This document shows positions 12,440 through 16,330 of a DNA stretch of 64,000 nt, one piece after another. The number at the start of each line of letters is the position of its first letter. Positions within the stretch are counted from its first letter, which is position 1. The DNA comes from an uncultured Pseudoxanthomonas sp. (lineage in GTDB: Bacteria > Pseudomonadota > Gammaproteobacteria > Xanthomonadales > Xanthomonadaceae). The stretch spans positions 1 to 64,000 of the forward strand of contig CAMLGZ010000003.1 of the NCBI GenBank assembly GCA_946479745.1, written 5' to 3'. The notes below the pieces were generated by a model. That model did no database searches and had not been told where the DNA came from. It saw only the letters and a list, made by a program, of their open reading frames with translations. Made by a program: the position numbers and the translations under genes.

Positions 12440-12606
12440 AGTTGAACCAATAATGCTCGCGCTTACAATCTCAAAAAATTGCAATTGCGCCCGTTCCCAC
12501 TAATAAGAGACCGCGCACATTAAAAATTAAGCGACCGCTCAGCTGGTGATCGTCTGCGTCAACGATTCCCGGGTCGGCGGCACTCGCCAGTCCGCTGCCT
12601 GGTTGG
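12440..12606 (-). repeat. Copy A of the cysB 3' end with its downstream flank
   Basis: Positions 12539-12606 repeat the last codons and stop of cysB with about eight changes over the first 65 bp; the reading gives [21 protein letters not shown], close to the true CysB tail. Similarity continues past the stop (12440-12538 against 16141-16252, starting AGTTGAACC and ending in a CATTAAA-containing stretch), so the region downstream of cysB was copied too. It now lies upstream of the DUF4189 pseudogene and may carry its promoter. It fills most of the gap 12322-12688. Confidence 0.8.
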
Positions 12607-12688
12607 ACCAGTGGCATGCCTTGCCGATACCGGTTAGTGTGCGAAAGCGGCGTGGGGACGTCAGCAAAATTCCAGGGGAAACCGATCC

Positions 12689-14218
12689 ATGACGCGCATC
12701 GCAACCGTTGTTCTCTGTTCGCTCGCATGGCTGATGCCAGCGCATGCCTTTGCGCAAGCCGCGCAGGCAAGAACCGCCTTTACCTTCTGCACCGTCGCCG
12801 ATATGTCGGGGGGCGGCATGGGCACAGCCAAGATATGGGCCTCGCCGACGCTCGAGTTCAGCTATCGGGCCGATGATGCGGGCGGCATGTCGCGCACGAC
12901 GGAACTGGCGACAGAGTTCCATACGTTCGTCGGCGGTATGGGCGGTTCTGGCGACAAGAGTTGCTTTCCCGCCACCGAAAGCCGTGCCGAACTGGAAGCG
13001 ATCAGGTCCCAGCAACGCAAGGACTGGACCAAGCGGATCATGCTCTGGGCCTCGAAATGGCAGGAAGTCGCGTGGACGCCCAAGCCCTGGAATCCGAATG
13101 CGGTGGTGGCGAAAGCCACCTTCTCCAATAAATATTTCTATTGCTATGTCACCGATGTCGAGCCGGACGTACGCAAGACGGTAGCCAGCCTGGTCTTCGA
13201 GAAACCGGTGCGCGGCGATGATCCCATGGCCGTCTACAACCAGACAGACGCCTACACTGACGAATTCAAACGCACTGCCCTGCCCGGCCATGGCGTGTCG
13301 GATCAGGGAACGATGTGCGTGTTCAAGGACACGCTGGCCGAAGCGGAAAAGAGCCGCAAGGAATATCGCAGGCTGTTCAGCGGCTTCAATCTGCGCTTTG
13401 TGGATCTGGCGTGGATTCCTTCCGGGACGGGATCACCGCAGCCCGCGACGCCGATCGTTGCCGCGACAGCGGTGGCGGCGGACACAACGCCTGCAGCTCA
13501 AGGCAGGCTTGGTGTGGCGATAGACACGGTCACCGACACGTTGGCGCTGGCACTGGGCCTGCAACCCGCACGGGGAGCGATGGTGGTGCAGGTGATCCCA
13601 GGTAGCGCAGCGGAAAAATCAGGCTTGAAGCCCTTGGATGTGGTGCTGGAGGTCGCAGGTCAATCGGTGGAGAAGGCGGCCGATTTGCCCGTTATCGTCG
13701 CGCGCCTGCGTCCCGGCTTCAAAGCCCCGCTGCAGGTGTGGCGCGAGCGCAAGATGCTGGAGTTGTCGGTGGAAATCGGATCGGCGGTCGCCACATCCGT
13801 TCCGTTGGCGGCACCGGCTGCGCAATCCGCTTCGACCGCCGCCGCAAAGCCGGCGGCATCCGTCGAACCCATGCACTGCTTCGCGGCGGTCAACACGAGG
13901 CGCCAGGCCTGGTATTCGCCGATCTGGGCCGAAACCCGTCCCGACGACATGAACACGCTGATCGCTGCGGCGCGCGACCAATTCCTGGCGCATGTACGCA
14001 GCATTGCGCCGGACCTGCCGGCCGATGCCGTCACCGACAGCAGTTGCCTTCCAATCAATAGCCGCAGCCACGGCTATGGTTGCTCGACCACGGCAGGCAA
14101 GAATCTGTACGCACGCGTCAGCTGCATCGCCGATGGCAACCTGTTGGGTATGGCATGGGTTGGCGAACGCAAGGCATGGCCGAAGTTGCAGGACGTGGAG
14201 TGGAAGCCGTCGCCTTGA
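12689..14218 (+). CDS. Secreted PDZ-domain protein of unknown function
   Basis: 509 residues. A signal peptide (about 1-24, ending AHAFAQA) is followed by a roughly 230-residue region with several cysteines, a PDZ domain at about 272-362 (GRLGVAIDTV ... IPGSAAEKSGLKPLDVVLEVAG) and an A/P-rich linker. A C-terminal cysteine-containing domain follows (about 390-509). No protease triad accompanies the PDZ domain, so a scaffolding or peptide-binding role is possible. It is the only plus-strand gene between two cysB-tail copies (12539 and 14243). It is not a recognised family beyond PDZ. Confidence 0.7.
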   Translation: MTRIATVVLCSLAWLMPAHAFAQAAQARTAFTFCTVADMSGGGMGTAKIWASPTLEFSYRADDAGGMSRTTELATEFHTFVGGMGGSGDKSCFPATESRAELEAIRSQQRKDWTKRIMLWASKWQEVAWTPKPWNPNAVVAKATFSNKYFYCYVTDVEPDVRKTVASLVFEKPVRGDDPMAVYNQTDAYTDEFKRTALPGHGVSDQGTMCVFKDTLAEAEKSRKEYRRLFSGFNLRFVDLAWIPSGTGSPQPATPIVAATAVAADTTPAAQGRLGVAIDTVTDTLALALGLQPARGAMVVQVIPGSAAEKSGLKPLDVVLEVAGQSVEKAADLPVIVARLRPGFKAPLQVWRERKMLELSVEIGSAVATSVPLAAPAAQSASTAAAKPAASVEPMHCFAAVNTRRQAWYSPIWAETRPDDMNTLIAAARDQFLAHVRSIAPDLPADAVTDSSCLPINSRSHGYGCSTTAGKNLYARVSCIADGNLLGMAWVGERKAWPKLQDVEWKPSP

Positions 14219-14242
14219 AGAACGCCAGACGGATCACGCAGC

Positions 14243-14320
14243 TCAGCTGGTAATCGTCTGCGTCAACGATTCCCACGTCGGCGGCACCGGCCAGTCTGCT
14301 ACTTGATTGCCGTCCAGCAC
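14243..14320 (-). repeat. Copy B of the cysB 3' end
   Basis: 78 bp matching 16253-16330 with five changes. Similarity starts exactly at the stop codon and extends into the gene; the reading is [25 protein letters not shown] against the true CysB end with A for V. Unlike copies A and C, the flank beyond the stop is not shared. On the minus strand it is joined in frame to a DUF1272-derived stretch, giving a 66-codon chimeric open frame (14243-14443). Confidence 0.87.
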
Positions 14321-14340
14321 AGAGCATTCAGCGGAAAAAT

Positions 14341-14571: not shown

Positions 14572-14593
14572 TCCGCCAAGAAACAATCAGCGA

Positions 14594-15064
14594 TTAGGCT
14601 TCCTTCACCTCTCCTACCGTGACCGTTCCTCCACAGCCATAGAGACACGATCCACCCGAGCCATAAACACGGCCGCCTGACCAATAATACGAACCTGAGC
14701 CACCACCACTGGATCCAGAAGGACTGCTTCCCGATCTAGGAGCCGTTTCCTTCATCAGCTTGTCGCATGGCTTATCCTCGGTAACGATGGTTGCAGAGTT
14801 AGCGATCTTGTACGACACCGGGCCCAGATAGTTATTCGACTTCCACTCAGCCTCGCCGAGCACTTCGATAGCTTTTTCATCTAGGTTCTTCAATGCCGCT
14901 GCCCGGGCTGGATTGTTATACCCCTGGGCACCAGCTACAGCGATATCCCATGCGGATACATCAATAATGCCAAGGTGAGGCATTGCTTTCATCGCACATG
15001 CGATAGCAAGTCCGCTGATCACCAAAGATCCGCCAGCCAGTACGATTCTGGATTTTTTATTCAC
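14594..15064 (-). CDS. Hypothetical membrane-anchored protein with a Gly/Ser-rich cysteine tail
   Basis: Not recognised. The GTG at 15064 is chosen because AAGGAG lies 5 bp upstream (156 residues); a GTG two codons earlier overlaps that site. An N-terminal hydrophobic segment (about 8-27) could be a signal anchor. A charged middle follows, then a low-complexity S/G/Y tail containing CLYGCGG. It is 30 bp downstream of the gene at 15101-16087 on the same strand, so the two are probably co-transcribed. Composition is AT-richer than the core genes, which suggests transfer. Confidence 0.6.
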   Translation of the reverse strand: MNKKSRIVLAGGSLVISGLAIACAMKAMPHLGIIDVSAWDIAVAGAQGYNNPARAAALKNLDEKAIEVLGEAEWKSNNYLGPVSYKIANSATIVTEDKPCDKLMKETAPRSGSSPSGSSGGGSGSYYWSGGRVYGSGGSCLYGCGGTVTVGEVKEA

Positions 15065-15100
15065 AACCACTCCTTAGTTGGTATACATGCCCTTAGTGCT

Positions 15101-16087
15101 TTACCCGCCGATTGGGCGTGGATCAACGGGTGACGAGCTTGGCCCACGAATCTTTCGCTGAAGCTCGTACAGGCTGTTATAGATATCCATCGCCTCCTGA
15201 TCTCCCTGCATGCGTTCGGAATTTGTTAGAGGAACGTCGAACATCAGATCGCGAGCAGCCGCAACCCTAAGATTTCCGCGCATTTCCGAAACTCGGCTAA
15301 CGGCATAGGCTGTTTGCCGGTCGCCTCCTCTGGTGCTGGCCAGATAAGAAGCCAGCATATCGAGTGCGAAGCCTGACCCTTTTGCACCTTCCGTCAATAG
15401 ATCAGTTACCGCAGCGTCATCACCGGCCATCAAACGCCGATGATCAAGTATCGTCTTCGCGCCCCTATCGCCCTGCTCTGCAGCTTCTCGTAGCTGCAGG
15501 TCAGAGGCCTGCGTGTAGGCAGCCCATTGCTTCGCATTTGGGTACCCGTTCCTATCAAGCCATGACTGCTCAGCTTTGCTTGTAGCCATGAATGGATCGT
15601 CATCCAGCGGCAAGCCGTCGCGACTCTGAGGCAGATCAGGGAATGGATGATGTCCGCTTGGCCGCACAGATTCTGGCTTGGCTTGAGCCTTAGCCTGCTC
15701 AATGCGCTTTGCAAGATCATCCGTTCTTTGCGCAACGTGGCCGGGGTCCTGCTGCGTTAAAGCAGACTCGGAGGGTTGGAGCCATAGCCACACCGAATAT
15801 CCCACCGGCAACAATAAGGTGGCAAACACGAATGGCGCTAGCGCGCCTGCAGGACGTGTTCGCCGTGCGAACCACATGACCAATGCGAACGCACCAATCA
15901 CTGTAAACGTAATGCCAATCCATAGCCAAGGCACGAATTGGCGGCAGATATCGGAATTCTGAGTGGCGCACTGAAGCGCTACCTGCTGAATAAGCGCGTT
16001 GGTGTGGAATAGGGCCAAGATAGCGAACGAAATCGCCAATCCAGCCGTACATGCCAGAAGAACGCTGGTTCGTTTTGCAATTTCCAT
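15101..16087 (-). CDS. Hypothetical three-helix membrane protein
   Basis: 328 residues from ATG with a strong AGGAGG upstream. Three hydrophobic segments lie at about 9-30, 52-72 and 82-104, followed by a long soluble C-terminal part that is mostly helical with Q/A/E/R-rich stretches and a possible Sel1-like helical section (EAAEQGDRGAKTILDHR). No family was recognised with confidence. It starts about 165 bp beyond the cysB stop on the same strand, so its promoter lies in the downstream cysB flank that is also copied at 12440. Confidence 0.62.
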   Translation of the reverse strand: MEIAKRTSVLLACTAGLAISFAILALFHTNALIQQVALQCATQNSDICRQFVPWLWIGITFTVIGAFALVMWFARRTRPAGALAPFVFATLLLPVGYSVWLWLQPSESALTQQDPGHVAQRTDDLAKRIEQAKAQAKPESVRPSGHHPFPDLPQSRDGLPLDDDPFMATSKAEQSWLDRNGYPNAKQWAAYTQASDLQLREAAEQGDRGAKTILDHRRLMAGDDAAVTDLLTEGAKGSGFALDMLASYLASTRGGDRQTAYAVSRVSEMRGNLRVAAARDLMFDVPLTNSERMQGDQEAMDIYNSLYELQRKIRGPSSSPVDPRPIGG

Positions 16088-16140
16088 TGCTGTTTCCTCC
16101 TACCAACGTGAATGAGCCGCGTCACTTCATTAACAATCCC

Positions 16141-16330
16141 AGTTGAACCGATAATGATTGCCTCTGCAAGCCAAAATCTGCGCCCCTCATTTCTATAATC
16201 GCGCCTCGCACCCATCAATGAGAGATCACTTGCATTAAAGATCAGGGATCAATCAGCTGGTAATCGTCTGCGTCAACGATTCCCACGTCGGCGGCACCGG
16301 CCAGTCCGCCGCCTGATTGCCATCCAGCAC
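16141..16330 (-). repeat. Copy C: native cysB 3' end and downstream flank, source of copies A and B
   Basis: 16253-16330 is the true end of cysB; 16141-16252 is its downstream flank. The first part is repeated at 14243-14320 and 12539-12606, the second part at 12440-12538. All three copies have the same orientation. Between copies lie different cargo genes, so the copies look like boundaries left by repeated insertion or duplication at this site. Confidence 0.8.

What the first reader, a model, noticed from the sequence alone, without database searches (positions are those of the whole stretch)
12440..16330. The 3' end of cysB, including its stop codon, is present three times around cargo genes
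78 bp at 14243-14320 and about 65 bp at 12539-12606 repeat the last codons of cysB (16253-16330) in the same orientation, with few changes. Copy A also carries the region downstream of cysB, while copy B begins exactly at the stop codon. Between copies lie unrelated AT-richer genes or a PDZ gene. This is the pattern left when DNA enters repeatedly at the 3' end of a gene and restores that end each time, or when tandem duplications capture new cargo. No integrase is visible, so the agent is missing or unrecognised. The cysB terminus may be an undescribed hot spot.
Basis: partly seen in the sequence, partly recalled or inferred. Interest (0 to 1): 0.72.

Follow-up and report, generated by a model that had tools for sequence, protein, structure and literature searches.

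The report
Stacked gene cargo behind cysB
In a Pseudoxanthomonas genome, leftover ends of the gene cysB mark the borders between gene blocks that were added one in front of another, most likely by recombination with relatives' DNA and without a dedicated mobile element; this is a clear example of a process already proposed for other loci.

Summary
The last 78 nt of cysB recur at 14243-14320 (73/78 identical) and the last ~67 nt at 12539-12605 (59/66), the latter with cysB's downstream leader. It holds the same two cargo blocks in opposite order: cysB-PDZ-decayed tail-hyp328-hyp158-DUF1272. Against CF125 the PDZ block diverges almost like its flanks (dS 0.42; flanks 0.25-0.38), the window's hyp328/hyp158 block far more (1.08/0.82). 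So the window probably passed through a CF125-like state; then a relative's cysB-cargo-DUF1272 stretch was added at the cysB end, pushing the old tail and cargo downstream. No tyrosine integrase was found near cysB, and the incoming piece ends inside a resident gene, which argues against an att-bounded element. Best reading: homology-anchored additive recombination, as proposed for T6SS immunity arrays and rhs tips. A family-wide tail-duplication hot spot is not supported: no clear tail copy in 71 related loci with at least 2 kb downstream.

The parts
16253..17239 (-). cysB (LysR-type regulator), intact; native tail 16253-16330
   Evidence: Pfam LysR_substrate and HTH_1; 98% aa identity to P. 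sacheonensis CysB
16088..16252 (-). leader between cysB stop and hyp328
   Evidence: 0.61 identical to the CF125 leader (101/165) and 0.55 to the leader behind tail A (75/137)
15101..16087 (-). hyp328: predicted membrane helices plus helical domain, function unknown; newest cargo
   Evidence: dS 1.08 to CF125 hyp328; no family hit above cut-off in Pfam, NCBIfam, PHROGs or PADLOC; model mean pLDDT 85.5
14594..15070 (-). hyp158: function unknown; newest cargo
   Evidence: dS 0.82 to CF125 hyp158; no family hits
14341..14487 (-). 5' fragment of DUF1272 (about 44 bp upstream plus about 34 codons, with a 2-nt insertion), right end of the newest block
   Evidence: 90% to 10873-10982; 127 identities and 18 mismatches to CF125 including the upstream part, which the window's own DUF1272 lacks
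14321..14340 (-). joint/filler between DUF1272 fragment and tail B
   Evidence: no clear match; weak similarity of DUF1272 and cysB around it
14243..14320 (-). cysB tail copy B
   Evidence: 73/78 to native tail; continuous with the PDZ block as in CF125
12689..14218 (+). PDZ-domain protein gene, older cargo
   Evidence: PDZ_2 E 6e-10; 87% aa to CF125, where it directly follows cysB; dS 0.42
12539..12605 (-). cysB tail copy A
   Evidence: 59/66 to native tail
12426..12538 (-). leader behind tail A
   Evidence: 12436-12605 matches the CF125 second tail plus leader at 76%; leader 0.69 to CF125
12369..12425 (-). remnant of an older hyp328
   Evidence: 49/57 to CF125 hyp328, chance-level match to the window's intact hyp328
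12004..12321 (-). shortened DUF4189-like gene
   Evidence: 94% over 85 nt to the start of its neighbour; no Pfam hit itself
11197..11718 (-). DUF4189 gene
   Evidence: PF13827 E 8e-16
10725..11042 (-). resident DUF1272 gene (longest ORF; the 82-aa start used in relatives lies near 10973)
   Evidence: PF06906 E 1e-28; follows cysB after about 630 bp in P. sacheonensis
7869..10679 (+). resident FmdA/AmdA-like and MFS-type transporter genes, far flank
   Evidence: PF03069; conserved order in L001 and CF125; the MFS name is by eye

Best explanation
The interval between cysB and DUF1272 is a variable gene slot in these Pseudoxanthomonas, and the window records two additive exchanges. Event 1, shared with CF125: a [cysB 3' end - PDZ] piece entered at the cysB end of a chromosome that already had cysB-leader-hyp328-hyp158-DUF1272, so the old tail was pushed behind PDZ (tail A here, the decayed tail in CF125). 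Event 2, window lineage: a relative's DNA spanning cysB-leader-hyp328-hyp158-start of DUF1272 recombined by homology in cysB, and its far end inside DUF1272 was joined, with little or no homology, to the resident cysB about 78 nt before its stop. This left an intact cysB followed by the new cargo, the DUF1272 fragment, the old tail (copy B), PDZ and the rest. The older hyp328/hyp158 behind tail A was mostly deleted and DUF4189 genes now stand there. Shown: the fragments, the swapped order in CF125, the collinearity of the newest block with a cysB-to-DUF1272 locus, its excess divergence, the old hyp328 remnant. Inferred: one anchored and one illegitimate end, a linear incoming piece, uptake by transformation, and when the DUF4189 genes came.
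For: Two tails with the same cargo in opposite order in CF125. The newest block is collinear with CF125's tail-hyp328-hyp158-DUF1272 and breaks off inside DUF1272. dS window-CF125: cysB 0.25, MFS 0.27, FmdA 0.38, PDZ 0.42, hyp328 1.08, hyp158 0.82. hyp328 remnant behind tail A is of the CF125 type, 49/57, and that leader is also closer to CF125. Displaced tails decay: in-frame stop in the CF125 tail, two W/P to R changes in tail A, one amino-acid change in tail B. No tyrosine-recombinase match nearer than 279 kb on the CF125 contig, none on the cysB contigs of G001-G003. The same process is proposed in PMC5361080 (passages).
Against: No genome was found with the window-type hyp328 behind a single cysB tail, so the donor type is assumed. 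The DUF1272'/tail-B joint has about 20 nt of unexplained filler, and short similarity there is only suggestive (76 and 138 of 2000 shuffles reach it). CF125 has 118 bp of unknown origin before its second tail, so the event-1 joint is not clean. The crossover in cysB leaves no visible patch: 91-98% identity to L001 along cysB. The coding part of the DUF1272 fragment is about equally close to window, L001 and CF125 (101, 100, 99 identities), so the divergent hyp block and the DUF1272 fragment do not show one common donor distance. Competence genes occur in 4 of 4 relatives but also in most control genomes.
Confidence: 0.62

Rival explanations
1. Circle version: a circle holding cysB tail, cargo and the DUF1272 start, closed at the DUF1272'/cysB joint, integrated by one crossover in the cysB tail.
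For: Gives exactly the same product as the best reading; circular intermediates are proposed for rhs tip displacement (PMC2935791, abstract and section 10).
Against: Needs an extra circularisation step and a crossover inside roughly 78 nt of homology. No circle was seen and none could be tested here.
Confidence: 0.14
2. Plain tandem duplication of the lineage's own cysB-to-DUF1272 interval, followed by separate gene losses and gains.
For: A DUF1272 head joined to a cysB tail is a tandem-duplication type joint; the coding part of the head is about as close to the window's own DUF1272 as to others.
Against: The blocks between repeats are unrelated genes, CF125 has the opposite order, and the intact hyp328 is not close to the CF125-type remnant behind tail A. 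A duplication older than the species split is not excluded.
Confidence: 0.11
3. Site-specific integration at the cysB 3' end by an element whose integrase is lost or acts in trans; the tails are attachment-site halves.
For: Gene end restored each time, same orientation, tail edges within about 30 nt of cysB.
Against: The newest block ends in a resident gene fragment. No tyrosine integrase hit in the window, L111 or 80 loci (control) nor near cysB in four genomes; serine recombinases were not searched. hyp328-hyp158 sits about 128 kb from cysB in G024 without a cysB tail beside it. No clear tail copies in 71 other loci.
Confidence: 0.07
4. Assembly or sequencing artefact.
For: No reads of the window are available.
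Against: The copies differ from the native tail by 6-11% and the DUF1272 fragment by about 10%, and CF125, an independent assembly, shows the second tail and both blocks.
Confidence: 0.03

Closest known systems
V. cholerae T6SS immunity-gene arrays built by sequential displacement (Kirchberger et al. 2017, PMC5361080; passages read)
   Same: Newest module next to a conserved anchor, older ones pushed back with the remnant 3' end of the displaced gene; the authors propose homology-facilitated illegitimate recombination without an integrase
   Different: There the anchor gene's own end (the effector) is exchanged and the cargo is immunity genes; here the anchor cysB keeps its end and the cargo has no known role
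rhs C-terminal tip displacement (Jackson et al. 2009, PMC2935791; abstract and section 10 read)
   Same: Displaced, decaying fragments of one gene with unrelated AT-rich cargo, newest first
   Different: Long core repeats, changed protein ends, circular intermediates proposed; here 67-97 nt remnants of a regulator that stays unchanged
Gene-turnover hot spots without mobile elements, exchanged at flanking core genes (Oliveira et al. 2017, PMC5635113; passages read)
   Same: Variable interval between core genes, no integrase found
   Different: Their model is clean replacement by double crossover; here pieces were added and left scars
Transformation-induced merodiploids of S. pneumoniae (Johnston et al. 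2013, PMC3784515; passages read)
   Same: Tandem-type joints made by unequal exchange in transformation; the passages also mention a 3.3-kb duplication without flanking repeats
   Different: The modelled cases use long repeats and span about 100-900 kb of the same genome; here a ~2-kb block with divergent cargo
Integrative elements at gene 3' ends (recalled, no call)
   Same: Restored gene end and a displaced tail
   Different: No integrase found and a right end inside a resident gene

Membership tests
Displacement array by homology-facilitated illegitimate recombination | Newest cargo directly behind an intact anchor gene, older cargo behind displaced anchor fragments | tested here: met
   Window and CF125 orders, divergence and remnant
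Displacement array by homology-facilitated illegitimate recombination | Incoming DNA is homologous at one end and joined without homology at the other | tested here: inconclusive
   cysB at one end, DUF1272'/cysB joint with filler and weak similarity at the other; event-1 joint unclear
Displacement array by homology-facilitated illegitimate recombination | Alleles in one genome come from different lineages, not from duplication | tested here: met
   hyp328 dS 1.08 against flank 0.25-0.38; remnant of the other type present
Hot spot exchanged at flanking core genes | Variable content between conserved flanks, no mobile-element genes | tested here: met
   tyrosine recombinases only, flanks compared on one side as control
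Hot spot exchanged at flanking core genes | Raised recombination in flanking core genes | not tested
   Needs a population sample of one species
Integrative element with attachment site at the cysB 3' end | Recombinase gene in or near the element | tested here: not met
   PF00589 in 4 genomes; 20 integrases against window, L111 and 80 loci. Serine recombinases not tested
Integrative element with attachment site at the cysB 3' end | Element bounded by attachment halves on both sides | tested here: not met
   Newest block ends with a DUF1272 fragment before tail B
Integrative element with attachment site at the cysB 3' end | Excision as a circle | not testable with these tools
   Needs PCR or reads

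The most novel reading that the evidence does not exclude
The left edges of the displaced tails (-97/-90 in CF125, -78 in copy B, about -67 in copy A) fall within about 30 nt of cysB. If this reflects a preferred joining site rather than survival of short repeats or chance, the cysB end would be an element-free port at which pieces of relatives' chromosomes are added by an unrecognised recombinase or a recurrent break.
Probability: 0.07. Interest if true: 0.7.

Novelty: new member of a known kind. Interest (0 to 1): 0.36.

Why it matters
Two sister arrangements let the order of additive gene acquisitions be read at a locus that is neither a toxin array nor a mobile element. It suggests that displacement stacking, proposed for rhs and T6SS loci, can also build variable intervals beside core metabolic regulators, and that short repeats of a core gene's end around AT-rich genes need not mean an integrase.

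Tried and rejected
Integrase/attachment-site reading: PF00589 in four genomes, 20 integrases against window, L111 and 80 loci (the same queries find two of their own loci). Not favoured; serine recombinases were not searched.

Tail-duplication hot spot: each of 80 loci was searched with its own cysB end (E <= 1e-4, looser scoring, E <= 1e-3). 71 of 80 have at least 2 kb downstream. One search gave four weak hits, two of them downstream (L042 at +8331, E 2.8e-5; L049 at +1988, E 7e-5); eight other 90-nt pieces of cysB gave 1 to 14 such hits each over the 80 loci, so I count these as background. L022 (489 bp downstream, not among the 71) has a 126-bp tandem array starting 24 nt inside cysB without cargo, a different thing. 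Genus DNA search: 27 of 38 genomes matched the 93-nt query; G032 alone had a second long match; G007, G036 and G037 had second or only matches of 23-32 nt that I take as chance. It scored at most 23 candidates a genome and misses diverged tails: 13 of 14 genomes re-searched by protein do have cysB, and their own tails were not tested by me unless they are also among the 80 loci.

The 118 bp between PDZ and the CF125 tail: only its own match in 38 genomes; a collinear match to decayed cysB is inconclusive (40 of 500 shuffles reach it). Microhomology at the DUF1272'/cysB joint: weak. hyp328 function: AlphaFold2 model, no PDB match with E <= 0.001. Spread: hyp328 at E <= 1e-60 in 2 of 395 family genomes, a sample with at most 5 candidates scored each; PDZ protein in 9 of 395, all but CF125 at 39-47% identity; their place relative to cysB was checked for G002 and G014 only (other contigs). 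The DUF1272 rows were misframed by my slice and are not used. Papers: cysB as an integration site (0 papers with all four terms) and two other wordings gave nothing specific in the listings; that is not proof of absence from print.
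Full report
What is there. The window belongs to a Pseudoxanthomonas: its CysB is 98% identical to that of P. sacheonensis. cysB is on the minus strand and stops at 16253. Going downstream of it (falling coordinates) the order is: hyp328 and hyp158 (16087-14594); a fragment with the upstream region and about 34 codons of DUF1272 (14487-14341); ~20 bp; cysB tail B (14320-14243); a PDZ-protein gene on the other strand (12689-14218); cysB tail A with its leader (12605-12426); a 57-bp hyp328 remnant (12425-12369); two DUF4189-type genes, one shortened; then the resident DUF1272, FmdA and MFS genes. 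Tail B is 73/78 and tail A 59/66 identical to the native tail.

Relatives. In P. sacheonensis (L001) cysB is followed after about 630 bp by DUF1272, FmdA and MFS, with one tail; about 46 nt behind its stop resemble the leader. Of 38 genomes of the genus searched with a 93-nt tail query, 27 matched and one, G032, had a second long match 1.9 kb away. I take G032 to be Pseudoxanthomonas sp. CF125, because the contig length 2,117,934 is the one listed with that name for P0006. Its order is cysB - PDZ - decayed tail - leader - hyp328 - hyp158 - one more ORF - DUF1272. The two cargo blocks are in opposite order in the two genomes, each behind its own cysB tail.

Order of events. Synonymous divergence between window and CF125 is 0.25 for cysB, 0.27 for MFS, 0.38 for FmdA and 0.42 for PDZ, but 1.08 for hyp328 and 0.82 for hyp158. 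PDZ behaves nearly like the flanks, so its block was probably present in the common ancestor. The window's hyp328/hyp158 block was probably not inherited along with it. The hyp328 remnant behind tail A is 49/57 identical to CF125's hyp328, and its best match to the window's own intact hyp328 is at chance level (9 of 300 shuffles reach it). The leader behind tail A is also nearer to CF125 (0.69) than to the native leader (0.55). So tail A was once followed by a CF125-type hyp328: the window lineage passed through a CF125-like arrangement and later gained a divergent hyp328/hyp158 block in front. That block is collinear with a whole cysB-to-DUF1272 locus: its right end carries about 44 bp of DUF1272 upstream sequence like CF125's, which the window's own DUF1272 lacks, and the first codons of DUF1272, before breaking into tail B. 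The incoming DNA looks like a stretch of a relative's chromosome, not a bounded element.

Mechanism (inferred). A piece anchored by homology in cysB and joined at its other end, with little homology, to the resident cysB about 78 nt before the stop gives this product, keeps cysB whole and moves the old tail and cargo downstream. This is homology-facilitated illegitimate recombination, proposed for V. cholerae T6SS immunity arrays (PMC5361080, passages). A circle integrating by one crossover, as proposed for rhs tips (PMC2935791, abstract and section 10), or an unequal exchange as in pneumococcal merodiploids (PMC3784515, passages), could give the same joint and cannot be told apart here. Short similarity between DUF1272 and cysB around the joint is suggestive only (76 and 138 of 2000 shuffles reach it). 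The crossover inside cysB left no visible patch, and CF125 carries 118 bp of unknown origin at the older joint. dprA and comEC homologues are present in 4 of 4 relatives but also in most of the 14 control genomes, so they prove nothing.

Against an integrase. In CF125 the nearest tyrosine-recombinase match on the cysB contig is 279 kb away, and in G001, G002 and G003 none lies on the contig with cysB. Twenty integrase sequences from these genomes found nothing in the window, L111 or the 80 cysB loci, while they find loci of their own. Serine recombinases were not searched. hyp328-hyp158 also occurs about 128 kb from cysB in G024, with no cysB tail beside it.

Is it a hot spot? The DNA behind cysB is more variable than the DNA before it: for pairs with cysB 92-95% identical, 0.74 against 1.00 of 2 kb is alignable (47 pairs); for the window and P. 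sacheonensis 0.06 against 0.99. The other flank is one conserved cluster, so this is a description rather than a test. Tail duplication is rare: no clear copy in 71 loci with at least 2 kb downstream (background), and CF125 alone in a genus search that is blind to diverged tails. Variable intervals without mobile elements, exchanged at flanking core genes, are a described class (PMC5635113, passages).

Verdict. A real, readable two-step displacement stack, an addition to known kinds of integrase-free gene turnover. The cargo proteins are mostly of unknown function. The closeness of tail edges within about 30 nt of cysB could still point to something new; with two events and a bias towards short surviving repeats it is weak.

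Noticed in passing
window 11197-11718 and 12004-12321: Two tandem DUF4189-type genes: starts 94% identical over 85 nt, the rest diverged; the second is shortened and has no Pfam hit.
   Followed up: no
window 7198-7454 and 7484-7739: A 259-bp tandem repeat (85%) just before the MFS-type gene.
   Followed up: no
window 4678-4755, 22449-22526, 63434-63527; and 7697-7765, 21082-21153, 25653-25730: Two sets of dispersed 65-94-bp repeats in both orientations.
   Followed up: no
L022, behind cysB: A contig titled Bacillus subtilis carries a Stenotrophomonas-like cysB (mislabelled or contaminated) followed by a 126-bp tandem array, about four units to the contig end, whose unit starts 24 nt inside cysB.
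   Followed up: partly
L111 13716-13833 (CF125, between PDZ block and second tail): 118 bp without a match elsewhere in 38 genus genomes; possibly decayed cysB, inconclusive.
   Followed up: partly
P0002: A 90% hyp328 relative is listed under a Pyrinomonadaceae MAG on a 2.2-kb contig, probably misbinned.
   Followed up: no
L074, +3 to +590 behind cysB: Xanthomonas arboricola has a ~230-bp imperfect tandem repeat directly behind cysB, not including the coding end.
   Followed up: no
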